A stretch of DNA of 64,000 nucleotides, from the NCBI RefSeq assembly GCF_000317515.1, contig NC_019738.1, positions 285,501 through 349,500 of the forward strand, in the 5' to 3' direction. Source of the DNA: Allocoleopsis franciscana PCC 7113. GTDB taxonomy: Bacteria > Cyanobacteriota > Cyanobacteriia > Cyanobacteriales > Coleofasciculaceae. Below, piece by piece: positions 45,161-57,295 of the stretch. The notes below the pieces were generated by a model. That model had not been told where the DNA came from, did not search any database, and saw nothing but the letters and a program-made list of their open reading frames with translations. The position numbers and the translations under genes were made by a program. Numbering within the stretch: position 1 is the stretch's first letter; every line of letters starts with the position of its first letter.

Positions 45161-45294
45161 ACGGCGTTTTCCATCAAGCTTCAAACATTTCTCTGTCCTG
45201 ATTTTGTAAGGAATTTGTGAGAAACTATAAAACTTTGGTCAATTATTAGGTATCCTGTTGGACAATAGCGCTACAGCTTTTGTTGGGACTTCAA

Positions 45295-45909
45295 ATGCGA
45301 ATTTTAAATCGGCCTCCTCAGTCAGAAACAGAGACAAGGCAGCGCATCCTCCAAGCCGCACAGCATTTATTTGCGAAGCGGGGGTATGACGGTACAACAA
45401 CCCGTGATTTAGCGAGTGCAGCTGGAGTAGCAGAAGGTACCCTATTTCGCCATTTTGAGAACAAAAAGGCAATCTTAATTGAGGTAGCCACTCAAGGCTG
45501 GATCGAAATTCTGACCGATTTGCTGACAGAACTCAGCGAGATGGGCAGTTATAAGGCGGTGGCACAGGTGATGCGGCGGCGGATGCTGCGAATGCATGAG
45601 AATGCCGATATGATGAAGGTTTGCTTCATGGAGGCGCAGTTTCATCCGGAGTTGCGCGATCGCATTCAGTCAGAAGTGATCATTAAAATGACCGATGTCG
45701 CGGAAGCCTTTTTCCAAACCGCCATGGATCGAGGCATTTATCGACGAGTCAATCCCAAAATAGTCGCTCAGGTGTTTTTGGGAATGTTTGCTGTTGCAGG
45801 TTTCAGCCATGAAACGATTATGGAGCCAGGAGCATCCCCCAAACAGATGCAAGAAATGGCAGAAGGAATTGCGGATATTTTCCTCAATGGCGTGTTAACC
45901 AAAGAGTAG
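45295..45909 (+). CDS. TetR/AcrR family transcriptional regulator
   Basis: A 204-aa regulator with the N-terminal TetR helix-turn-helix (TRQRILQAAQHLFAKRGYDG, TTRDLASAAGVAEGTLFRHF) and a C-terminal ligand/dimer domain ending in an AefR-like tail (GMFAVAGFSHETIM). TTG at 45280 would add five residues, but ATG at 45295 is used. No divergent efflux gene is adjacent, so its target is unknown. Confidence 0.9.
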   Translation: MRILNRPPQSETETRQRILQAAQHLFAKRGYDGTTTRDLASAAGVAEGTLFRHFENKKAILIEVATQGWIEILTDLLTELSEMGSYKAVAQVMRRRMLRMHENADMMKVCFMEAQFHPELRDRIQSEVIIKMTDVAEAFFQTAMDRGIYRRVNPKIVAQVFLGMFAVAGFSHETIMEPGASPKQMQEMAEGIADIFLNGVLTKE

Positions 45910-45956
45910 GAACTGATGAAGGCTGAAGCATGAAGTATCAAGTATACAATTTATGC

Positions 45957-46409
45957 TTATAATTCATGCTTTTCGGCTAAATCACGCGCTTGCTTAATCC
46001 AGGATGCTACTTGGTCTACCTGAGGACACAAATCTTTGCGCTGCATCATAGTCACTTGCAGACGTAAGATTTGTTGATGCAATCGGTGAATCGGAGTCTG
46101 AGCCAGTTGATTTACGGAACACACACCCGCATGAAGCACGAGTCCGCAATATTGGGAACCAATCCCCGGAAGGCGAGCCAAATCGGCTAGGGCAACCCAC
46201 TTGTTTACGTACTGAGTCTTGATTTGTAACTGATTAGCCAGTGCTTGCCTCAGTTGTGGAGTACTGGCTGTTTGTAGGAGTTGTCCAGTGGTTTTAATAC
46301 CAACTCCTTTGAGTTTGGTACGATCCTGAGGGCTTAATCCCGGTAGTTGATCAATCGACCAGTTACAGGGTTGGGTTGTGTTACGTGGAATTTTAGCTTT
46401 GGAGTACAT
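45957..46409 (-). CDS. DUF4332 family protein (helix-hairpin-helix)
   Basis: A 150-aa protein with two helix-hairpin-helix-like units: LPGLSPQDRTKLKGVGIKTT and LADLARLPGIGSQYCGLVLH. The DUF4332 pattern is common in cyanobacteria and suggests DNA binding, without catalytic residues. It stands alone, convergent with the TetR gene. Confidence 0.85.
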   Translation of the reverse strand: MYSKAKIPRNTTQPCNWSIDQLPGLSPQDRTKLKGVGIKTTGQLLQTASTPQLRQALANQLQIKTQYVNKWVALADLARLPGIGSQYCGLVLHAGVCSVNQLAQTPIHRLHQQILRLQVTMMQRKDLCPQVDQVASWIKQARDLAEKHEL

Positions 46410-46541
46410 CCCGATTACCTGGGAAATTTATCTGTGTAGGAGGTTATGGTTAAACAGTAAAGTCAATCTAGGGAGAGAAAATAGCTTCACAGTCATGATA
46501 ACTTTATAGTCATCCCCCTGAAGACTGATCGCCGTTTGGCA

Positions 46542-47303
46542 ATGCCACAACCTCCTCCCTCATCCTCTCAGACTCTGTCTGAGGACAAATCTCCAATTTG
46601 CGTATCCATCAAGTTGGGAGGAAAACTCATTCAAGCAGAAAAGCCGGGAATTTTCAACCTCAAGCGTCAATCGGCTGCAACAGACCAAATCAAACTGTAC
46701 TTGACTCTACAATTCAATGAACAGGAACAGCCTTTACCTATTGGTCGCCTTAAGTTTGGTCTAACAGGAGGAGAACTCCAGTTAAGGGTAGAAAATGGCA
46801 TCATTTTCCTGGCATCCCCTGGACTAAATCAAGCTTTTGAACTTTCTAGACAACAAGGAAGACAAAACCCGGAAGGTAGTGACACTCAAAGCTGTGTCAC
46901 CGTCTTTTTCAAAGAGAAAAAACTTGCAATCAAGGGAAGTATTGGCACTCAGAAAATAGCTGAGAAAGCGGAGCAAAACCAATTGTCTATTTCTCAGGTC
47001 AGTCATCAGGGTTCACAGGAAAATTTAACCTGGGTTGTCTTGGGAGAGCAGAATAATTGTATTTTACAAGGCTCACTCCAGCCTATCTTACTGGGAACCC
47101 TGAAGGTAACCGCCAAGCCCTGCCGTGTGGAATCCATCTTTTCCGTATCGCCACAAGATATACGTATAACCGATGTCACAGGTTTGTTACCCCACACCAT
47201 TGCTAAAAAGAAGAGGGTCGTTCTGGAGAGAGCGTTTGTTCGTCGCTTACTCAAGCGAAAATTAAAGACCTATCTGAGCCGATACGAATTGCGATATGAG
47301 TAA
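46542..47303 (+). CDS. Partner protein of pentapeptide module 1 (unrecognised family)
   Basis: A 253-aa protein of unknown family, paralogous to the 54936-55742 product. Shared blocks: LYLTLQFNEQ followed by GRLKFGLTGGELQLRVEN, PCRVESIFSVSPQDIRITD, and the end KLKTYLSRYELRYE. The middle is variable and mostly Ser/Thr/Gln rich. No signal peptide or membrane segment. The stop overlaps the pentapeptide gene by 8 nt (47296-47303), so the two are translationally coupled. An in-frame TTG six bases upstream (TTGGCAATG) is also conserved in the paralogue, so the exact start is uncertain. A chaperone, immunity or ligand-binding partner is possible; nothing in the sequence decides. Confidence 0.7.
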   Translation: MPQPPPSSSQTLSEDKSPICVSIKLGGKLIQAEKPGIFNLKRQSAATDQIKLYLTLQFNEQEQPLPIGRLKFGLTGGELQLRVENGIIFLASPGLNQAFELSRQQGRQNPEGSDTQSCVTVFFKEKKLAIKGSIGTQKIAEKAEQNQLSISQVSHQGSQENLTWVVLGEQNNCILQGSLQPILLGTLKVTAKPCRVESIFSVSPQDIRITDVTGLLPHTIAKKKRVVLERAFVRRLLKRKLKTYLSRYELRYE

Positions 47304-48324
47304 TGAAGCATTTGCTTTGCAATTTCACAACCTGAGCCAGCAAATTATGGGAGCAAGGACAGAAGACTTGTCCCGATTAGCACAAATTGCTGGCGTAAAT
47401 CTTTGTGAAGATTTTGTCGGTGTTGATCTCAGCGGTGAAGATTTAAGTGGTGATAAGTTGAGAGGTGCTAATTTGAGCCGCGCCGATTTGAGTGGCACCA
47501 ATCTGAGCCGTGCGGATCTCAATCGTGCTGAACTTAATCATGCCGACTTGAGCGGTGCCGACTTGAGTCGTGCTGACTTGGGTAGTGCTAATTTGAAGAA
47601 TGCAAATCTCAGTGGTGCAAATCTCAGAGATACCAACCTCAGAGATGCCAATTTATGGGGTGCGAATCTCAGTGGTGCTTGCCTAATTAGTAGCAACTTG
47701 ATCAATGCCAACTTAATCGGAGCTAATTTAAGTAGCGTTAACTTGATTAATGCCAATCTTAGGGATGCTAAGCTGATCAACTCTGACTTGAGTGGTGCGA
47801 ACCTCAGCCGTGCTGATCTCAGAGATGCTAGTCTAATTCATGCCAAGCTCATCAGTGCCAATCTTAGGGATGCCAACCTGAACGAGGCAGACTTGAGGGG
47901 AGCTACTCTGATTAGCGCCATTCTTAACCGTATCAACTTAAGGGATGCTAACTTAATCGGAGCGGAACTCAGTGGTGCAGACCTGAGCGAAGCGGATTTG
48001 AGTGGCGCTAACCTGCTTAAGGCTAATCTAACTCGCGCCAATCTCAGTAACACCAACCTGAATGGCGCAAATATGAGTCGCGTCAATCTTATCGGCGTTA
48101 AGCTCAGTGGTGCCAATCTCCGCAGCACCAACTTGAATCGTGCCAACTTGAGTAATGCTAATTTGTGTGGTGCTGATTTGAAACTGGCTAATCTCAGCCT
48201 TGCTAATCTCAGCTTTGCGGATGTGAACCAGACAGTGTTTGCTTATAATTTGGGAATTACAGAAGTAATCAAGCGCGATTTGGTGCAACGAGGAGCCATT
48301 TTTGAAGATACGGCAGGCAATTGA
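47296..48324 (+). CDS. Pentapeptide-repeat protein, module 1
   Basis: A 342-aa protein. After a helical cap (about 1-40, TEDLSRLAQIAGVNLCEDFVG) come about 50 tandem pentapeptides of the A(D/N)LSx type (about 44-310), folding as a right-handed quadrilateral beta-helix. A C-terminal cap (FAYNLGITEVIKRDLVQRGAIFED) is shared with two paralogues. No signal peptide and no second catalytic domain. Pentapeptide proteins can mimic DNA or act as scaffolds; the function here is unknown. The start lies inside the partner gene stop (ATGAGTAA). Confidence 0.92.
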   Translation: MSNEAFALQFHNLSQQIMGARTEDLSRLAQIAGVNLCEDFVGVDLSGEDLSGDKLRGANLSRADLSGTNLSRADLNRAELNHADLSGADLSRADLGSANLKNANLSGANLRDTNLRDANLWGANLSGACLISSNLINANLIGANLSSVNLINANLRDAKLINSDLSGANLSRADLRDASLIHAKLISANLRDANLNEADLRGATLISAILNRINLRDANLIGAELSGADLSEADLSGANLLKANLTRANLSNTNLNGANMSRVNLIGVKLSGANLRSTNLNRANLSNANLCGADLKLANLSLANLSFADVNQTVFAYNLGITEVIKRDLVQRGAIFEDTAGN

Positions 48325-48587
48325 TCACAGGTTATGACCCTTAGACTTCTTGCAAAAGTCAATTTTTGCCCCCTCTACTCAAACATCCTGTTTTTGGAAT
48401 GAGAAAGTGTTAGATATTACATGGTAATGTTATTCTAAGTTTTCCCTAGGACTGAGGACACGCTTTATTTTCCGCAGTTTGACAGCGTGACTATCCTGGT
48501 TAGGACTTGCTGTTGTTTGCTATTGCAGGCAGACCGATAACGGCTTTCTCCTACAGGTTTATCCTCGAACCGAAATGAGCAATTACA

Positions 48588-49115
48588 ATGACTTCAACAA
48601 TATCAAAAAAAATCTGCATGTTGGGCGATTTTAGTGTAGGAAAGACCAGCCTAATCCGCCGTTTTGTAGATCGTCAGTTTAGTGATCAATATCTTTCCAC
48701 TGTTGGTGTAAAAATTTCTAGAAAGACGGTTGAATGCCAATCATTTGAACAGCAAAAACAGGTAAATGTACAACTGCTCATCTGGGATTTAGAAGGAAAT
48801 ACTAAATTCAAGGCAGTGACTCCTACTTATTTGCAAGGTGCTAGTAGTGCCGTTGTTGTTGCAGATATCAATCGTCAGGTGACTATCGATCATGTTTCCG
48901 ACCATATTCAATGCTTTTTATCCGTTAATCCTAAAAGTTTTGTCATTGTTGCTTTAAATAAATCAGACTTAATCGATGAGGAAACTCGAAACAAATATTT
49001 AGCCTGTATTGTGATGAATGCTCCCGATAAAATAGTAGCTGCCTATTCGACTTCAGCTAAGACCGGTTTATTTGTTGATGAAATTTTTCAAAAACTAGCC
49101 TACCAAATGCTCTAA
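48588..49115 (+). CDS. Ras-like small GTPase
   Basis: A 175-aa Ras/Rab-type GTPase: G1 GDFSVGKTS (Lys19), G2 with Thr39 in STVGVK, G3 WDLEGN (Asp67), G4 NKSD (Asn124-Asp127) and G5 TSAK. The position of the usual catalytic Gln of Ras proteins is Asn71, which would lower intrinsic hydrolysis and make the protein depend on a partner (inference). The gene is 5 nt upstream of a PAS protein and likely co-translated. No GAP-like or roadblock gene is next to it. Confidence 0.88.
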   Translation: MTSTISKKICMLGDFSVGKTSLIRRFVDRQFSDQYLSTVGVKISRKTVECQSFEQQKQVNVQLLIWDLEGNTKFKAVTPTYLQGASSAVVVADINRQVTIDHVSDHIQCFLSVNPKSFVIVALNKSDLIDEETRNKYLACIVMNAPDKIVAAYSTSAKTGLFVDEIFQKLAYQML

Positions 49116-49120
49116 TTCTA

Positions 49121-49891
49121 ATGGATTCTGTCTTACAGCAACTATTATCTCTTCGCCAAATTGAATACTTGGTTGTGGATCGGCAGTTGAATATTCTAGA
49201 GACATCATTAGGAGTCAAGAAGTTTGCTGATTTTCCTCAAGAAGTAAAGCCAACAAAGCCCCTCTGTCTTGGTTTTCCAGAACTGGTGGGCGTCGAAGAT
49301 ATTCTAATCGCTATCCTGGAAGGACGAAAAGATAGTTTTGAGTTAAAAGGGATTGGACGTTTATCCGTCCAAGGTCACCCATTATATGTGGATCTTTATG
49401 TCCTTAAACCTCAAAATACGCAAGATTTAGGGAATCGGTTAGTGGTCTTTGTTGAAGATGTTACTGAAAGAATGGTTTTAGAACAAAAATTAGTTCAGAG
49501 ATCGAATGAAGTCAGCCTTTTATTAGAAGCGTGGGATTCTTCTAATGAGTATTTAAATAAAATTATACAGTCTCTGGCTAATGCTTTGTTGGTAACGACT
49601 CGCTCAGGGATTATCAAAATGGTCAATCAATCGGCTAATAACTTATTTGGATATAGCAAAGAAGAATTAATGGGTACGCAAATTTCTAAAGTTATTGTTG
49701 AATCTAATTTATTATTAGAAGCCAGTCAACGCTATTTTTTAGCACAAGAATTTTCGCGGGATATAGAAGTGGTCGGTCTAACCAAACAGGGAACACAGGT
49801 GGCGATCGCATTTTCCTGTTCAGCCATTCAAACTAATAGAGAGAACATCCCAGATTACATCTATGTGGGTCGGGCGATTAGCAAGCGCTAG
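49121..49891 (+). CDS. PAS-domain protein linked to the Ras-like GTPase
   Basis: A 256-aa protein with two PAS-like domains: a first (about 5-120) ending LVVFVEDVTERMVLE and a second (about 145-256, SLANALLVTTRSGIIKMVNQSANNLFGYSKEEL), joined by a helix. No kinase, HAMP or output domain. The 5-nt gap to the GTPase gene suggests that it senses a signal and controls the GTPase or binds it. It ends without a further gene in the operon. Confidence 0.85.
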   Translation: MDSVLQQLLSLRQIEYLVVDRQLNILETSLGVKKFADFPQEVKPTKPLCLGFPELVGVEDILIAILEGRKDSFELKGIGRLSVQGHPLYVDLYVLKPQNTQDLGNRLVVFVEDVTERMVLEQKLVQRSNEVSLLLEAWDSSNEYLNKIIQSLANALLVTTRSGIIKMVNQSANNLFGYSKEELMGTQISKVIVESNLLLEASQRYFLAQEFSRDIEVVGLTKQGTQVAIAFSCSAIQTNRENIPDYIYVGRAISKR

Positions 49892-50436
49892 TGAAATCAC
49901 AAACATTTCGAGAGCAGCACAGCACGCTCCCTAATACGAAGTTGCGTTCAAACAGGATAGATCAGAAGCAGCAGGGCTGGAACTGTACGAGGACGGGGGA
50001 TCAGGGGAGCAAAGCCTGTGCCGGTAGGAACTAGGGGTAGTGTGTAACGTACCAACCGAAGACGAATCCCATTCTCTTGTCGTGCTAACTTATCTCTTCC
50101 CTCAAGTTAATTCCAGTTTTGCTGTCTCTAACTGAGAAAGAATTTAAGTATAGGTCAGGGTGAGGCATTATACCCATATACCTAGGCAACCGATTGAAGC
50201 CTCGTGCTAGCCTAGCTTTGTAGCGAAAGCAATCTCTAACCACTAATTCCCATCTTAACCATGCTACATCCTCTCCCCACAACACCATTGCCAGAGCTTG
50301 AGAATGATTACCCTAAAGGCTTTTTCAGGGAATTGAAGAAAACTCCAGTTGAAGTGAGAAGCTTCAATGGAAGCCACAAGGGGTAATCTTTGAGTAATCT
50401 CCCAGTGATCGTTTTTCAACTATTTATTATTCTTCG
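49892..50436. other. 545-bp gap without recognisable gene
   Basis: No coding frame with convincing codon usage on either strand. A 67-codon minus-strand ORF at 50085-50288 is present but unsupported. No tRNA, CRISPR or strong terminator is seen. It probably holds the FHA gene promoter. Confidence 0.6.
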
Positions 50437-50859
50437 ATGCCTACACAACCCAATCAAAACCATTTATTGATTATTGAAGACGAGAAGGGACGTAGAGAAT
50501 TTCCCTTAGAAGAAGCCGTGTATTCTCTCGGCAGAGACCCCAGCTCTGATATCCGTCTATTCTCTCAGTTTGTTTCTCGCCATCACGCTACTTTGGTGCG
50601 ACGGCAGCGCGAGGATGGCAGTCACTACTATCAGATTGTGGATGGGAATCTCAAAGGGAAACCTAGTGCCAACGGACTTTTGATTAATGGTCGCAAACTA
50701 CAAGCCCACGATCTTGTAAATGAGGATGAGATTGTCTTTGGTCCTCAGGTGAGTGCCAAATACTACCTACTCAGACAAAATACCAATCCAACGGGGCCAC
50801 TCGATGAGTTTGACATTACCCTGATTAGTCCTGGGATGATAGACGAATTTGAAGATTAA
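50437..50859 (+). CDS. FHA domain protein
   Basis: A 140-aa single FHA domain that binds phosphothreonine peptides: LGRDPSSDIRLFSQFVSRHHA contains the conserved Gly-Arg, Ser-Arg and His residues, and NGLLINGRKL the Asn-Gly pair. The acidic tail is not part of the fold. It presumably reads Ser/Thr kinase signals; no such kinase gene is in the window. Confidence 0.93.
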   Translation: MPTQPNQNHLLIIEDEKGRREFPLEEAVYSLGRDPSSDIRLFSQFVSRHHATLVRRQREDGSHYYQIVDGNLKGKPSANGLLINGRKLQAHDLVNEDEIVFGPQVSAKYYLLRQNTNPTGPLDEFDITLISPGMIDEFED

Positions 50860-51184
50860 CGACTAGTACCAGAAGGCAGTTCGCGTAGCGTTCTCCGTAG
50901 GAGTAGGCTCCAAGGCAGGAAGCAGAAGGTAAGAAAGTTTGTACAGTAAGCTTTTTAACCTTGTTCAACGGGATGGTTATTTCTGCCGCGCTGCCCTGGG
51001 TTTTGCCTCTATGGGGTTGAGGAAACCTTAGGAAGGCAAGCCAGGACGTGCCATAGAGAATCCCCACGGTTGTAGCGTTAGTGCAATTTGGTGTGACGCT
51101 AGCGCGACCGTGGGAGGAGTAATTTTGAGATTGAGGATGTGAACCCGCATAACGACGTGATCCCAAATAGCTGAAAATAAGGGT
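50860..51184. repeat. 325-bp gap with dispersed repeat and long hairpin
   Basis: A cyanobacterial repeat with GCGTAGCG (50883-50890) and palindrome CTCCGTAGGAG (50893-50903) is present, also seen within the 24896-28789 kinase gene. A 52-bp hairpin spans 51063-51114 (arms CCCACGGT/ACCGTGGG with inner TAGCGT/ACGCTA). No gene. Confidence 0.6.
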
Positions 51185-51823
51185 ATGACCAGCAACATGC
51201 TCAGGCAACCAGAACAATGTATCCAGCTATCAAGTATTAGTTGGCAGACCTATCAAACGTTGTTAGGGGAACTGAGCGAACGTCGATTGCGCCTTACTTA
51301 CAATCGTGGCATCCTCGAAATCATGGCTCCCTCACCTGAGCATGAGCTTTACAAAAAGTTAGCCAGTCGCTTTGTCGAAACCATCGCTGAAGAACTGAGG
51401 ATTAGCATCTATCCTCTGGGTTCCACGACGTTCACCCGTTCAGACCTCAGTATGGGTCTAGAACCGGATGAGTGTTTTTATATCCAGAATCAAAGTGCGG
51501 TTAAAGGCAAAAGGAAAATTGACCTGACTCAAGATCCACCGCCTGATTTAGTGATCGAAATCGATATGACCAGTAGCGCTAAAAATCGCTTAGAAGTTTT
51601 TGCCCATATCGGTGTTCCAGAAATCTGGCGCTACGACGGCATATTTCTGACCCTCTACCAGCTACAAAACAAGACCTATGTTCCATGCCAGCAAAGTCTG
51701 AGTTTTCCAACTTTGTACATGGAAAAAGTTGACCATTTTCTGCTTCAGGCTGGAGTTGTGGATTATTTAGAGCTAGTTAACTCTTTTCGGCGCTGGGTTA
51801 AAAGCCAGATTCGACAACAATAA
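51185..51823 (+). CDS. Uma2 family (DUF820) restriction-endonuclease-like protein
   Basis: A 212-aa Uma2 protein with a PD-(D/E)XK core: GLEPDECFYIQN, then PPDLVIEIDM and the downstream AKNRLEVFAHIGVPEIWRYDG block. These proteins are very numerous in cyanobacteria; catalysis has not been shown for most. Single gene, no partner. Confidence 0.9.
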   Translation: MTSNMLRQPEQCIQLSSISWQTYQTLLGELSERRLRLTYNRGILEIMAPSPEHELYKKLASRFVETIAEELRISIYPLGSTTFTRSDLSMGLEPDECFYIQNQSAVKGKRKIDLTQDPPPDLVIEIDMTSSAKNRLEVFAHIGVPEIWRYDGIFLTLYQLQNKTYVPCQQSLSFPTLYMEKVDHFLLQAGVVDYLELVNSFRRWVKSQIRQQ

Positions 51824-51858
51824 TCAAGAAGTATGCAGAAAATGTTAGACTTCATCCT

Positions 51859-53238
51859 TTATTGGACGAGTTGCTCGATCGCATCCGCATGAGTTGGCAA
51901 AGCGGCTGTGATCACTTCGCTACCCTCCTCCGTGACTAAAACATCATCTTCAATGCGAATACCTCGAACATCGCTAAATTGGGCAAGACGCTCCCAATTG
52001 ACCACTTCCTGATATTTTGAACGGAGTTGTTGGTCATGCAAAATTGCCGGGACTTGATAAAACCCTGGTTCAATCGTCACCAGCATTCCCGCTTTTAAGG
52101 GTCGATTGAGTCGCAGGTAACATAAGCCAAAGCGCGAGCTCCTCTTTCTTCCCTCCTCATAACCCGCTAAATCTCCCAAATCTTCCATATCATGGACATC
52201 CAAGCCCAGCAGATGACCCACACCGTGAGGAAAAAACAGGGCATGAGCATCCATTTCCACCAAATCTGACACCTGTCCTCGCAGAATGCCTAAATCCACC
52301 AAGCCTTGGGAAATCACCGATGCCGCCAACAGATGAATATCTAAATATTCGATGCCAGGGCGGATTTTGTCGATACAGGCATCATGGGCGGCTAAAACAA
52401 TCTCGTAGAGATCGCGTTGGGTGGAGGAAAACGTTCCTGTAACAGGCCAAGTGCGCGTGACATCAGACGCCCAACCCATCGGTGTTTCAGCCCCAACATC
52501 AGCCAGTAGCAAATCTCCCGGTTGCAAGGGATGGTGATACTGCTCGTTGTGCAACACTTCACCATAAACTGTGACAATGCCGGCATAGGCATCTGTCATG
52601 TTGTGAGCCATAATTACATGTTCCATCGCCCCCCGCACCTCGGCTTCTAACTTAGCCGTCGGGGTTGCCCTCATCCCCGCTTGATGAGCTTCTACGGTGA
52701 CGGCGGCGGCTTGTCGTAATTCGGAGAGAGCACCTGGGTCATGACACAATCGCAAAGATGCGATCGCACGGACTAACTCTCCATCAATCTCTTCAGCCCC
52801 ATCGGCTGGCGCTACGGAGCGATTTAAGATTTGAGTTTGTTGTTGGTAAGTAGTGACATCTTGAACAGCAATAGTCGCCGCCCCTGTGCTCCGTGATGGC
52901 AGTTCTGACAGAGGAAAAGCCCCATCCGCCCCAATCGCTTGAGCGATTTCCTCCCGCTTGGGCATCTCCCCATGCCAGAGAGCATGGCTAGAAGGTGCCT
53001 CGTCCATAAACAATTCTAGCTTTCCACCATGCAGGAAAATTGCCACATTTTCTAGCGGTATACCTGCAAAATAAAGAAAGTGGCTGCTCGCCCGAAACGG
53101 GTAAACATTTGCCGGAAAATTGCGCGAACTGCGCTGCCCTGACCAGAGAATGGCGGGAAAATCAATCATTTTAGCGAGGCGTTGACGGCGCTCTCGCAGC
53201 GTTGTTGCAAGCGTACTGTGATGCTGTAGAATCTCCAT
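51859..53238 (-). CDS. M24 family aminopeptidase (Xaa-Pro aminopeptidase type)
   Basis: A 459-aa metallopeptidase with an N-terminal AMP_N-like domain (about 1-140) and the C-terminal pita-bread fold. Metal ligands are readable: Asp247 (LLADVGAE), Asp259 (SDVTRTWP), His342 (HGVGHLLGLDVHD), Glu390 (TIEPGFY) and Glu430 (IRIEDDVLV). It removes N-terminal residues that precede proline, most likely in the cytoplasm as no signal peptide is present. Complete; single gene. Confidence 0.93.
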   Translation of the reverse strand: MEILQHHSTLATTLRERRQRLAKMIDFPAILWSGQRSSRNFPANVYPFRASSHFLYFAGIPLENVAIFLHGGKLELFMDEAPSSHALWHGEMPKREEIAQAIGADGAFPLSELPSRSTGAATIAVQDVTTYQQQTQILNRSVAPADGAEEIDGELVRAIASLRLCHDPGALSELRQAAAVTVEAHQAGMRATPTAKLEAEVRGAMEHVIMAHNMTDAYAGIVTVYGEVLHNEQYHHPLQPGDLLLADVGAETPMGWASDVTRTWPVTGTFSSTQRDLYEIVLAAHDACIDKIRPGIEYLDIHLLAASVISQGLVDLGILRGQVSDLVEMDAHALFFPHGVGHLLGLDVHDMEDLGDLAGYEEGRKRSSRFGLCYLRLNRPLKAGMLVTIEPGFYQVPAILHDQQLRSKYQEVVNWERLAQFSDVRGIRIEDDVLVTEEGSEVITAALPTHADAIEQLVQ

Positions 53239-53277
53239 AATTTGGAGGGTAGCACGAGACGCTAAAAAGATCAGCCG

Positions 53278-53544
53278 TTATTCGGGATCATCATCATCCT
53301 GTGTATCCTCATCCGGGTTTGTCTTTTGATTAGCCTTGGTAGACTGCTTTTGTTTGAGTTGTTTATTAGATTTCTGCTGCTCAATCTTGGTAGGCTGCTT
53401 TTGGGTTGCTTCCTCAGTGTTTTTACTTCCTGGAAAGACTTTTTGGCAACCAGAGAGAGTAACTCCGCTCGCTATTAATAACAAGACAAAAACGGCGAAA
53501 TTAGCCCAAATTGGTCTTTTAATTTTCCTATTTGCTTCCAACAT
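53278..53544 (-). CDS. Small lipoprotein, Lys/Gln-rich
   Basis: An 88-aa protein with a hydrophobic signal (about 12-30) and lipobox LSGC (Cys33), so it is anchored through a lipid. The mature part is low-complexity Lys/Gln/Thr followed by an acidic Asp/Glu tail. No domain is recognised. Divergent from no gene; it lies 39 nt after the M24 peptidase gene start on the same strand. Confidence 0.7.
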   Translation of the reverse strand: MLEANRKIKRPIWANFAVFVLLLIASGVTLSGCQKVFPGSKNTEEATQKQPTKIEQQKSNKQLKQKQSTKANQKTNPDEDTQDDDDPE

Positions 53545-53860
53545 CAGCCACCTTTACTCTTAAAATTAGAAATCATACGCAGTTGCCTTCAAACATAGTA
53601 ATTGAGACAGAAACCCAGAAGCCTGTACACTCCAGCCACGGATAAAATGAATCTGCTAGGTATGCATACCACTTGGTATCCACAGAAATTGTGCTGCAAA
53701 AACTCTGCGTTCCTCTGCGCGTTCCTCCGTGTCCCTCTGCGTTAAAAAAATATTTCGATGCTCACAGATTCGATATGAATCCTAACCGAGACCGATAAAT
53801 TTTTAACTTCAGAAATTGAGACACAATTTAATCACTCGATGTTCCCGTATCTTCTAATTT
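53545..53860. repeat. 316-bp gap with dispersed CTCTGCG-type repeat, copy 2
   Basis: Contains the repeat CTCTGCGTTAAAAAA at 53735-53749 (same as 24842-24856), preceded by further CTCTGCG copies from 53703. A 12-bp palindrome GGTATGCATACC is at 53659-53670. No gene seen. Confidence 0.6.
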
Positions 53861-54943
53861 TTAATAAGGCGCTAGAACTTCCGAACGGTCACTCGTTGAA
53901 TCTTCAAAAATTGCCCCCCGCCGGAGCAAAACACGTTGTGTCTGAGCCGAAATTCCCATATTCCTAGCAAACTGAGCATTTTTGACATCCGCCCCCCTCA
54001 AGTCTGCCTCACTGAGGTTGGCATCGCTGAGGTTAGCACCACACAATTCAGCAATGCTCAGGTTGGCACGAATCAGGTTAGCACTGCCTAAATTAGCAAG
54101 GCAGAGGTTGGCAAGGCTCAAATCGGCAAGACTCAAGTCTGCACCCCTGAGATCTGCACCGCTCAGGTTGGTACGGATTAAGTCCGCATCCCTAAGGTTG
54201 GCACGCATGAGGTCAGCACTACTCAGGTTCGCCCGAATTAGGTTAACATCACTCAAATCGGCAAGACTCAAATTAGCCGCCTTAAGGTTCGTTCCCCTTA
54301 ATTTGGCACAATTGAGTTTAGCTTCGCTCAGGTCGGCTTCTGTGAGATCCGCCCCATCAATTTCGGCACATCTAAGATCGGCACCCCCAAGGTAGGCACG
54401 AATCAGATAAGCTCCTTTAAGATTGGCATGGCTCAAGTTCACACGACCCAAATTAGCTCCCCTAAGTTTGGCATCGCTCAAGCTCACGCCTTGAAGGTTA
54501 GAATCCCTGATATCGGCACCCCTAAGGTCGGCACGGCTTAGATTAGCACTACAAAGTATCGTTTCGCTGAGGTTGGTATCACTCAGGTTCGCACTGTTCA
54601 ACTCAGTACTCTGGAGGTCAGCGCCCCTCAGGTTGGCACCTCTGAGATTGGCACCTCTGAGATTGGCATTGTCAAGATGAGCACCCCTGAGATCAGCCCC
54701 CCTCAAGTCAGCACCTTGGAGATGAGCGCCTTTAAGATGAGTGCCCCTAAGGTTGCAACCTCTAAAATCAACCTCAATCAGGTCAGCTTCACTCAAGTCA
54801 GTACCGCTCAAGTCAGCTTCGGCAAAATCTTCAGCAAGATTCAGACCCGCCAGGGTTGCGAGTTGCTCAAGATTGTCTGTTTCTGTTTCTACAATGCGCT
54901 GGATCAGGGTTTGTAGATCCAGTCGAGATTGGTCATCACTCAT
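53861..54943 (-). CDS. Pentapeptide-repeat protein, module 2
   Basis: A 360-aa paralogue of the module-1 pentapeptide protein: the same N-terminal cap (LIQRIVETETDNLEQLATLAGLN then AEDFAEADL), a long beta-helix of A(D/N)L repeats (about 45-325), and the same C-terminal cap (FARNMGISAQTQRVLLRRGA). No extra domain. The start ATG overlaps the partner gene stop by 8 nt (ATGAGTGA). Encoded on the opposite strand to module 1. Confidence 0.92.
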   Translation of the reverse strand: MSDDQSRLDLQTLIQRIVETETDNLEQLATLAGLNLAEDFAEADLSGTDLSEADLIEVDFRGCNLRGTHLKGAHLQGADLRGADLRGAHLDNANLRGANLRGANLRGADLQSTELNSANLSDTNLSETILCSANLSRADLRGADIRDSNLQGVSLSDAKLRGANLGRVNLSHANLKGAYLIRAYLGGADLRCAEIDGADLTEADLSEAKLNCAKLRGTNLKAANLSLADLSDVNLIRANLSSADLMRANLRDADLIRTNLSGADLRGADLSLADLSLANLCLANLGSANLIRANLSIAELCGANLSDANLSEADLRGADVKNAQFARNMGISAQTQRVLLRRGAIFEDSTSDRSEVLAPY

Positions 54944-55742
54944 AATGCAACTCCGCTCGACTGAGATAGGGCTTTAATTTGGGTTCCAGTAAACGCTGGA
55001 TAATGAGTCTGTCTAACACTGCCCTTTTATTCCGACTAATGTCTGGCGGCCATAATCCTTCAGCATCCGTTAGACACACATCTCGTTTGGAAACTTCAAA
55101 CCTTGCTTCTATTCGACAAGGCAACGCAAATACATTTACGGTGGCAAGCTTGACCTGATTGAGTACCCCTTTTAATACGGGTTCACCCATTTCTTCTTCA
55201 AAAATCCAGACGGGATTTTCCTCAGTTACTTTAGTGGTTACGTGGCAAACCGTAACGGACGCTTCCGTTAAAGACGACTTTGGCTGTGTACCAAAAGTTA
55301 CTTGAGATTGAGGTTTATTACCGTTGAAGTGAGAGGCAATGGTGATTGGTTTTGTCGTCGCCCTTGGCGCAATGACCTGTCCCAGCGTATTCTTTCGCGA
55401 CTGACTCCTACGGTGATCTGGCATTTCTGGAGAATTTCCCAATACAAGGGAGCCGACTAACTCACGAGACTCATAGGGAATTTCACTATTTTCCAGTCTG
55501 AGTCTCAACTCTCCACCTTTGAGGCCAAACTTAACGCGTCCTTTATCTAGTGATTCCCACTGCTCGTTAAAGCGGAGGGTCAAGTACAGGTCAATCGGTT
55601 GCCTCTGAGTTGATGTTGTCCAAAATGCTAAATGCTCTGGGCTGTCAGGTTGAACTAAAATTCCTGACAACTCCATATACAAGCAATCTGGATATTTGTT
55701 TTCAGGCTTCGGTTGAGGCTGTTTTGAAAGGGGAGAATGCAT
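54936..55742 (-). CDS. Partner protein of pentapeptide module 2 (unrecognised family)
   Basis: A 268-aa paralogue of the module-1 partner. Conserved blocks: LYLTLRFNEQW followed by GRVKFGLKGGELRLRLEN, PCRIEARFEVSKRDVCLTD, and the end KLKPYLSRAELHYE. The N-terminus and a central region (about 105-170) are variable. An in-frame TTG precedes the ATG (TTGGCAATG), as in module 1. The stop overlaps the downstream pentapeptide gene by 8 nt. No known domain; the conserved coupling is the main clue to function. Confidence 0.7.
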   Translation of the reverse strand: MHSPLSKQPQPKPENKYPDCLYMELSGILVQPDSPEHLAFWTTSTQRQPIDLYLTLRFNEQWESLDKGRVKFGLKGGELRLRLENSEIPYESRELVGSLVLGNSPEMPDHRRSQSRKNTLGQVIAPRATTKPITIASHFNGNKPQSQVTFGTQPKSSLTEASVTVCHVTTKVTEENPVWIFEEEMGEPVLKGVLNQVKLATVNVFALPCRIEARFEVSKRDVCLTDAEGLWPPDISRNKRAVLDRLIIQRLLEPKLKPYLSRAELHYE

Positions 55743-56389
55743 TGCCAAGCTTGAATCAGATAGTTCAAGGGGTTACTTTTGACACTCCCACGCGACGAAA
55801 TGCGTGGAACTCTTGGGCTGAGACGGCCTCTTTCAGTTAGCTTACTTAAGGTCTTCTATTCTGATGTCGAGCCGTTTTAATCTCCTCCTCAAGCGTTCGT
55901 TCCCGTGAGTTCCACGGTACTTTGGCAGCTATTCAATCACAATGCTATTCCTGAGTCTCACTACAAGATTTTACTTTTCCAATGAGTTCCTCAAACTTTT
56001 GGGTTGAACCTCATGGCCTGTATTGCTTTGTCTAGGTTCACTCCTTCTGTAGATGGCATAGCTATGTTTAACGTAATTTTCGCTATCCATATTTATTCAA
56101 CATCATACCAATCTTAATTAAAGTGAAATAAATATCTATATATGTGTAGCAAATTGTAAAACAGCTCAATCTTGACGCAGCAGAAAGGGGCCTTTATTTT
56201 ACAAAACTTTATATTTTAATTGACTTGTTTTCACCAAATTTGCTTAGGTTCCGGAGGCTGCATCCTCTTTGAACTCCGGTTTCCTGGTAGAGTAGCAGTG
56301 AGAGAATCATAATAGGATATTCATCGGGTGAGACCGCCCCTACTTGTTAAGTAAAATGAAGTACAAACTACAAAACTTAACGATTTATC
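55743..56389. other. 647-bp gap with possible IS200/IS605-type relic
   Basis: At 55787-55807 a hairpin CCCACGC...GCGTGG is followed by AACTCTTGGG, resembling the ends of IS200/IS605 elements as I remember them. No transposase or TnpB ORF remains. The rest is AT-rich without a supported gene; a short minus-strand ORF (55991-56059) is not supported. Confidence 0.4.
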
Positions 56390-57295
56390 TCAGTTTGGCA
56401 GATTAGCCAAGCTGTAACTATTGTGCTTACCATTCGCCTCCTCAAAAATTGCTCCTTGACGAATTAAATCCAGTTGTGTTTGCTCGGAAATTCCTAAATT
56501 TCTAGAGAACTGAGCATTTTTGACTGTAATACCTCGTTGCTGGGTGTCACTGAGGTTGGCACCACTGAGGTTGGCATCACTGAGGTTGGCACCACTGAGG
56601 TTGGCACCACTGAGGTTGGCACCACTGAGGTTGGCACCACTGAAATTGGCAAGACTCAGATCAGCACCAATCAGATCTGCTCCACACAAGCTAGCTGAGC
56701 TTAAATCGGCACAGATGAGATCCGCTAAGCAGAGATTGGCACGAATTAAGACAGCATGGCACAAATCAGCCCGGATCAAATTCACCCCACTGAGGTTGGT
56801 TGCACCCAAGCTAGAACCACAAAGATTGGCACCTCCTAAATTTGCCCCTCCTAAGTTAGCTTGACTCAGTTCTGCTCCGCCCAAGTTGGCTCCTCTCAAA
56901 TCCGCCTCGCTCACATCAGCCCGGAGCAAATTGGCAATAATTAGATTTGTATAGCTCAAATTAGCAGAATTCAACTTGGCTTCGCTCAGGTTGGCACGCA
57001 TGAGGTTGGCATAACTCAAGTTGGATCGGCTCAAATTAGCAGAAATCAAGTTGGCGTTGCTCAGAATGGCACCTCTAATGTTGGCACCTCTGAGGTTAGC
57101 CCCACTGAGGTTAGCATTACTGAGGATTGCACCTCTGAGGCTGGTATTTCTCAGATCGGCTCCAGCAAAATCTTCAGCAGGATTGAGACGCGCAATTTTT
57201 ACGATCTCTGAAAGATTGTCGGTTTGTGCTGTGATTACACATTGGATCAGGTCTTGCAGTTCCTGGAGCGACTTTTCGTCAATTGTGTCAATCAT
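56390..57295 (-). CDS. Pentapeptide-repeat protein, module 3 (partner decayed)
   Basis: A 301-aa paralogue of the other two pentapeptide proteins, with the N-terminal cap (LIQCVITAQTDNLSEIVKIARLN then AEDFAGADL) and C-terminal cap (FSRNLGISEQTQLDLIRQGA). The beta-helix (about 45-260) includes a block of near-perfect 15-bp repeats. It lacks an intact partner gene, but a remnant of one ends inside its start with the same 8-nt overlap. Gene order on this strand: receiver-DUF3685, remnant, this gene, partner 2, pentapeptide 2. Confidence 0.92.
   Translation of the reverse strand: MIDTIDEKSLQELQDLIQCVITAQTDNLSEIVKIARLNPAEDFAGADLRNTSLRGAILSNANLSGANLRGANIRGAILSNANLISANLSRSNLSYANLMRANLSEAKLNSANLSYTNLIIANLLRADVSEADLRGANLGGAELSQANLGGANLGGANLCGSSLGATNLSGVNLIRADLCHAVLIRANLCLADLICADLSSASLCGADLIGADLSLANFSGANLSGANLSGANLSGANLSDANLSGANLSDTQQRGITVKNAQFSRNLGISEQTQLDLIRQGAIFEEANGKHNSYSLANLPN
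56551..56640. repeat. 15-bp tandem repeat, six units, inside pentapeptide gene 3
   Basis: Six consecutive 15-bp units TGAGGTTGGCACCAC (plus-strand reading); five are identical and one has a single base change. Each encodes one Ser-Gly-Ala-Asn-Leu pentapeptide, which indicates very recent expansion of the beta-helix. Confidence 0.92.

What the first reader, a model, noticed from the sequence alone, without database searches (positions are those of the whole stretch)
46542..55742. Duplicated two-gene module: unknown partner plus pentapeptide-repeat protein
Seen: the 46542-47303 and 54936-55742 products are paralogues sharing three sequence blocks, and each is followed by a pentapeptide-repeat gene with exactly 8 nt overlap (47296-47303; 54936-54943). 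The four pieces sit in two inverted modules. Both partner starts also share TTGGCAATG. Inference: the pair works together and the overlap fixes their translation ratio. I know of no named system with this composition.
Basis: partly seen in the sequence, partly recalled or inferred. Interest (0 to 1): 0.8.

Follow-up and report, generated by a model that had tools for sequence, protein, structure and literature searches.

The report
Paired Ig-like and pentapeptide-repeat protein module
Many cyanobacteria carry an unnamed protein domain that is almost always joined to a special kind of pentapeptide-repeat protein, either as one fused protein or as two overlapping genes, so the two very probably work as one complex whose job is still unknown.

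Summary
The two partners are paralogues (37% identical), and each overlaps a pentapeptide-repeat gene by exactly 8 nt. The arrangement is old and widespread. The same genome holds a third copy in which partner and pentapeptide protein are one polypeptide. The partner profile hits 216 of 389 genomes of the order. Of 99 distinct partner domains read in context, 39 are fused to pentapeptide repeats and 51 lie directly upstream of a pentapeptide gene. Five more precede a gene with the same N-terminal cap but no repeats. The 8-nt overlap is kept in 49 of 60 separate copies. One tree branch parts fused from separate forms. The specific link is a 45-residue helical cap on the pentapeptide protein. 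It occurs only four times in this 8-Mb genome (about 61 pentapeptide ORFs): three with a partner and once beside one. The partner folds as an Ig-like beta-sandwich, and a model of the fused protein gives pTM 0.88. Best reading: an adaptor domain packed on a capped pentapeptide tower, made as a translationally coupled heterodimer or a fusion, with tails that differ between lineages. The target is unknown. The partner has no Pfam, NCBIfam, PHROG, PADLOC or PDB sequence match.

The parts
46542..47303 (+). partner 1, 253 aa, Ig-like partner-domain family (profile A1)
47296..47303 (+). 8-nt overlap ATGAGTAA of partner 1 stop and pentapeptide 1 start
47296..48324 (+). capped pentapeptide-repeat protein 1, 342 aa
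47296..47430 (+). 45-residue N-terminal cap (profile A2) of pentapeptide protein 1
   Evidence: G000:C1:332796-332930
54936..55742 (-). partner 2, 268 aa, Ig-like partner-domain family; predicted beta-sandwich plus C-terminal helix
54936..54943 (-). 8-nt overlap ATGAGTGA of partner 2 stop and pentapeptide 2 start
53861..54943 (-). capped pentapeptide-repeat protein 2, 360 aa
54809..54943 (-). 45-residue N-terminal cap of pentapeptide protein 2
   Evidence: G000:C1:340309-340443
56390..57295 (-). third capped pentapeptide-repeat gene, 301 aa, upstream of module 2, without its own partner; a similar gene lies upstream of the partner in L036, L038 and L040
57152..57280 (-). N-terminal cap of the third pentapeptide protein
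   Evidence: G000:C1:342652-342780
46536..46544 (+). TTGGCAATG at partner 1 start
55740..55748 (-). TTGGCAATG at partner 2 start
45957..46409 (-). DUF4332 helix-hairpin-helix protein; neighbour that also lies near the module in other genera (context, not shown to be functional)
51859..53238 (-). aminopeptidase P-like gene (named from sequence, not searched); neighbour that also lies near the module in other genera (context only)

Best explanation
The partner is an adaptor-type Ig-like beta-sandwich domain that packs against the N-terminal cap and first coils of one particular class of pentapeptide-repeat beta-helix. In most genera of the order the two are one polypeptide. In a single clade that includes the window they are two chains from genes overlapping by 8 nt, which probably makes their translation coupled so that they assemble as a heterodimer. 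The composite particle is most likely a cytoplasmic scaffold or regulator that binds another protein through the side of the tower (as HetL binds HetR), not an enzyme. In some lineages the tower carries an extra signalling or catalytic domain as output. Shown: paralogy, overlap, fusion, co-occurrence, cap specificity. Predicted: the fold and the fixed packing. Inferred: heterodimer in the cell, coupling, binding role. Unknown: the target.
For: Third copy in the same genome is one 464-aa ORF, partner plus cap plus pentapeptides. Of 99 distinct partner domains, 39 are fused; of 60 separate ones, 56 are followed by a cap gene (51 with pentapeptide repeats) and 49 have the 8-nt overlap. Partner and cap profiles co-occur in 207 of 389 genomes, with 9 and 20 having only one. 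The cap occurs exactly four times in the genome, all at partner loci, against 204 PF00805 matches. One branch (SH-aLRT 98) parts fused from separate. AlphaFold2 of the fused paralogue: mean pLDDT 90.7 and pTM 0.88 despite a disordered linker at residues 208-222, which suggests a defined arrangement of the two domains. Best structural match of the partner domain in two separate models is the alpha-macroglobulin receptor-binding domain 1edy_B: Z 10.7, rmsd 3.0, 124 aligned; Z 9.5, rmsd 3.2, 124 aligned. In the fused class, outward-facing repeat positions are conserved at orthologue level (for example R, D, D and A-L at 92-95%), as for a fixed binding surface; in the separate class they are not. 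Tails of the second gene vary: protein kinase plus GTPase, cNMP-binding, NfeD, DUF5678, retropepsin-like.
Against: No experiment. pTM is from the fused form; no inter-chain prediction or PAE was available for the separate pair. The Ig-like assignment rests on fold comparison with Z about 10, and such sandwiches are common. Four partner domains have no cap gene after them, and the third capped gene in the window has no partner of its own. Eight-nt overlaps are common in bacteria generally, so coupling is inferred from conservation. Co-occurrence statistics are not corrected for phylogeny, and loci were chosen one or a few per genus, not at random.
Confidence: 0.62

Rival explanations
1. The pentapeptide protein is a DNA mimic of the Qnr/MfpA kind that protects or inhibits gyrase, and the partner controls it.
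For: The tower superposes on HetL, MfpA and QnrB1 at Z 20-24; NCBIfam Qnr models give sub-threshold matches.
Against: Net charge of the pentapeptide proteins ranges from +7 to -28 with no constant acidity; Qnr and MfpA scores are far below their cut-offs; many pentapeptide proteins share the tower.
Confidence: 0.08
2. A biological-conflict module of the modular cyanobacterial kind (constant adaptor, variable effector), for example part of caspase/STAND signalling.
For: In Moorena the partner domain ends a TPR protein next to a caspase-NB-ARC gene; the second gene's tail varies between lineages; Kaur et al. describe constant modules tied to pentapeptide, TPR and STAND partners in cyanobacteria (PMC7159879, PMC8195603).
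Against: No PADLOC match; no relatives on plasmids or phages; the fused orthologue is conserved through most families, and most members carry no effector domain.
Confidence: 0.17
3. A toxin-antitoxin pair, the overlap ensuring antidote supply.
For: Two small overlapping genes, duplicated.
Against: The pair is fused into one chain in 39 of 99 distinct domains, is chromosomal and widely inherited, and neither gene has a toxin or PADLOC match.
Confidence: 0.03
4. Neutral passenger linkage: the genes are neighbours only because the local region was duplicated.
For: The two window copies lie between conserved neighbours DUF4332 and aminopeptidase P.
Against: Adjacency or fusion to a cap or pentapeptide protein holds in 95 of 99 distinct domains across many genera and in an unlinked locus of the same genome.
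Confidence: 0.02

Closest known systems
HetL (heterocyst differentiation pentapeptide-repeat protein, Nostoc PCC 7120; PMC7476756)
   Same: Same pentapeptide tower (3du1, Z 23.5, rmsd 2.0, 167 aligned); a cytoplasmic pentapeptide protein that works by binding another protein (HetR).
   Different: HetL is a 237-aa single protein; no partner gene is described for it. The HetL model matches only the middle repeats of the window proteins, although protein 2 exceeds its cut-off (300 vs 260 bits).
Qnr / MfpA gyrase-binding pentapeptide proteins
   Same: Tower fold.
   Different: Scores far below the family cut-offs, no constant acidic surface, extra cap and partner.
Alpha-macroglobulin receptor-binding domain and bacterial pilin/adhesin Ig-like domains
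   Same: Fold of the partner domain (Z about 9-11).
   Different: 5-9% identity for the macroglobulin domains; those are extracellular; the partner shows no signal sequence by eye and is attached to a pentapeptide protein. Fold resemblance only.
Bacterial TRADD-N / EAD conflict systems (Kaur et al., PMC7159879, PMC8195603)
   Same: Constant module tied to varying domains, including pentapeptide repeats, in cyanobacteria.
   Different: TRADD-N is an RRM-like alpha/beta domain; the partner is predicted mostly beta with one long C-terminal helix.

Membership tests
Pentapeptide-repeat proteins (PF00805) | At least eight tandem A(D/N)LXX repeats over the family cut-off | tested here: met
   255, 306 and 203 bits vs cut-off 20.2 for the three window genes
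HetL (NF047416 equivalog) | Score over the curated cut-off of 260 bits | tested here: inconclusive
   Protein 2 scores 300, protein 1 199, third gene 138; repeat similarity can inflate this, and the best match covers only residues 94-295 of 360
HetL (NF047416 equivalog) | Binds HetR and counters PatS | not testable with these tools
   needs two-hybrid or pull-down
Qnr / MfpA | Score over the NCBIfam equivalog cut-off | tested here: not met
   Qnr 77-111 bits vs cut-off 240; MfpA 55-89 bits vs cut-off 360
Ig-like beta-sandwich fold (partner) | Beta-sandwich superposing over the whole domain on known Ig-like domains | tested here: met
   1edy_B Z 10.7, rmsd 3.0, 124 aligned of a 130-residue target; again Z 9.5 in a second model
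Any named Pfam, NCBIfam, PHROG or PADLOC family (partner) | Match over the curated cut-off | tested here: not met
   none for the window partners; in Pfam only single weak hits among the 31 members
TRADD-N conflict systems | RRM-fold TRADD-N domain in the constant component | tested here: inconclusive
   Model is mostly beta with one long C-terminal helix; no profile-profile test was run

The most novel reading that the evidence does not exclude
A previously undescribed cyanobacterial signalling architecture: a constant Ig-like partner docked on a constant 45-residue cap, with the pentapeptide tower as spacer and binding surface and a swappable C-terminal output (kinase plus GTPase, cyclic-nucleotide-binding, protease-like, NfeD, ribosomal protein L5). 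It passes between single-chain and translationally coupled two-chain forms.
Probability: 0.35. Interest if true: 0.75.

Novelty: new variant of a known kind. Interest (0 to 1): 0.6.

Why it matters
Cyanobacteria hold more pentapeptide-repeat proteins than any other group, yet almost none has a known partner or biochemical role (PMC8145042). Here is a class of them, recognisable by a 45-residue cap and found in over half of the sampled genomes of the order, with a near-obligate, previously unnamed partner domain. That makes a direct test possible: purify or delete one small module, ask what the composite surface binds, and use the fused orthologue with its strongly conserved face as bait.

Tried and rejected
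First genome-contig scan with partner 1 alone found nothing; the profile A1 then gave 32 named loci. PDB sequence search with the partner profile gave no hit, and the cap profile only chance hits. Foldseek alone listed pore-forming toxins for the partner, but with TM about 0.3 and rmsd 15-25, so this was rejected as a beta-sheet artefact; the second look gave Ig-like sandwiches instead. No significant viral structural match. No plasmid or phage relatives, no defence family. DNA mimicry was tested by net charge and is not supported. Conserved neighbours TetR, DUF4332 and aminopeptidase P recur at several loci, including genomes with the fused form, but look like shared ancestral position, not function. 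Paper searches for pentapeptide repeats with Ig-like domains, two-gene operons or translational coupling found nothing relevant. The careful tree did not finish; the quick tree was used.

Full report
Observation. Partner 1 (46542-47303, +) overlaps pentapeptide gene 1 (47296-48324) by ATGAGTAA, and partner 2 (54936-55742, -) overlaps pentapeptide gene 2 (53861-54943) by ATGAGTGA. The partners are paralogues (37% over full length, E 4e-51) and so are their neighbours (47%). A third pentapeptide gene of the same type, 56390-57295 (-), lies just upstream of module 2 and was not mentioned; in L036, L038 and L040 a similar gene also lies upstream of the partner.

The family. No Pfam, NCBIfam, PHROG or PADLOC model covers the partner and no PDB sequence matches its profile. 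The own genome has three copies. The third is a single 464-aa ORF in which the partner domain runs into the same kind of pentapeptide protein. A 31-sequence profile finds the domain in 216 of 389 genomes of the order, 91 of 149 genera, and rarely outside it (39 of 292 in a phylum sample, 37 of them within the order). Named members include Coleofasciculus, Symploca, Moorena, Nodosilinea, Microcystis, Tychonema, Microseira and Roseofilum.

Linkage. I read 99 distinct partner domains with their surroundings. Thirty-nine are fused to pentapeptide repeats in one ORF. Sixty are separate. Of these, 56 are followed by a gene that starts with the cap described next: 51 of these carry pentapeptide repeats, and five (four from Microcystis and one short gene in L024) keep the cap without repeats. 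The 8-nt overlap, of the form ATGNNTRA, is present in 49 of the 60. In a tree of the domains (a quick search with SH-aLRT support only) a single branch with support 98 parts fused from separate forms, so there was one fission or one fusion, and the overlap has been kept since across families. The direction depends on the root, which is midpoint only. The two window partners fall in different subclades, so their duplication is old.

The cap. The pentapeptide proteins begin with about 45 residues of the form LIQxIxxAxTDNFxELAKIAGLNPxxDFAGA, which the fused proteins also have between partner and repeats. This stretch occurs exactly four times in the 8-Mb genome: at the two operons, at the fusion and at the third gene of the window. 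The genome has 204 pentapeptide matches in about 61 ORFs among those listed. Across the 389 genomes, partner and cap are both present in 207, the partner alone in 9, the cap alone in 20 and neither in 153 (Fisher p 8e-73, not corrected for phylogeny). So the association is with this capped class, not with pentapeptide proteins in general.

Structure. AlphaFold2 of partner 2 gives a confident core (pLDDT over 90 in most strands) with a disordered insert at residues 108-158. VIA-align places it among Ig-like beta-sandwiches, best with the alpha-macroglobulin receptor-binding domain 1edy_B, Z 10.7, rmsd 3.0, 124 aligned. The fused paralogue, modelled separately, gives the same match (Z 9.5, rmsd 3.2, 124 aligned) and a pentapeptide tower with an N-terminal two-helix cap and a C-terminal helix. 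Its pTM of 0.88 over 424 residues, with a disordered linker between the halves, suggests that the partner domain has a defined place against the tower; PAE was not available, so this is inference. Conservation fits a fixed interface: in fused proteins, many outward repeat positions in coils 2-4 are 87-95% identical, whereas in the separate class they drift.

Variable tails. In some separate pairs the second gene carries an extra C-terminal domain: Ser/Thr kinase plus GTPase (L100), cyclic-nucleotide-binding domain (L106, L107), NfeD (L054), DUF5678 (L096), a retropepsin-like match (L098), ribosomal protein L5 (L065), or unknown sequence (L053, L056). In Moorena the partner domain ends a TPR protein encoded next to a caspase-NB-ARC gene. 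This fits a constant docking pair with changeable outputs, but most members, including those of the window, have no extra domain.

Mechanism. Most likely the Ig-like domain and the capped tower form one rigid unit, as a fusion or as a heterodimer from translationally coupled genes, and bind another cytoplasmic protein along the tower, as HetL binds HetR (PMC7476756). Fusion, adjacency, overlap and cap specificity are shown; packing is predicted; coupling and binding role are inferred; the target is unknown. DNA mimicry, toxin-antitoxin and passenger linkage are less likely for the reasons given under the rivals.

Novelty. Pentapeptide proteins are well known and their roles in cyanobacteria are largely open (PMC8145042). 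I found no description of this partner domain, its cap or the paired arrangement in the libraries and papers searched; the paper library lacks most subscription journals. I rate it a new variant of a known kind.

Noticed in passing
L065:5530-6573 (Drouetiella hepatica MAG): The second gene of the pair is cap plus pentapeptides plus a full ribosomal protein L5 (both L5 Pfam domains over cut-off); its partner gene carries an extra N-terminal HTH-like region (by eye, no Pfam match).
   Followed up: partly
L060:5722-6540 and L058, L059, L062 (Microcystis): The second gene keeps the cap and the 8-nt overlap, but the pentapeptide repeats are replaced by a weakly DUF1822-like region (below the Pfam cut-off).
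   Followed up: partly
L105:6172-9176 (-) (Moorena): Caspase-NB-ARC gene followed by an overlapping TPR gene that ends in the partner domain: the partner in a programmed-death-like setting.
   Followed up: partly
L100:6782-9676: 965-aa second gene: cap, short pentapeptide stretch, protein kinase and a GTPase domain.
   Followed up: partly
window 53861-54943 (-): Scores over NCBI's HetL equivalog cut-off (300 vs 260 bits), so automatic annotation may call it HetL; the cap, length and partner argue against simple equivalence.
   Followed up: no
window 48588-49891 (+): Ras-like small GTPase followed by a PAS-domain protein between the two modules; both are also present in the other genome of the genus.
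   Followed up: no
window 45280-46409 and 51859-53238: TetR regulator, DUF4332 and aminopeptidase P-like genes (one or more of them) also lie near the fused form of the module in several distant genera (L066, L073, L075, L077, L120), suggesting an ancestral locus that was later duplicated in place.
   Followed up: partly
window 46536-46544 and 55740-55748: TTGGCA directly before the ATG of the partner gene in 15 of 58 family members read, including two of another family; meaning unknown.
   Followed up: partly
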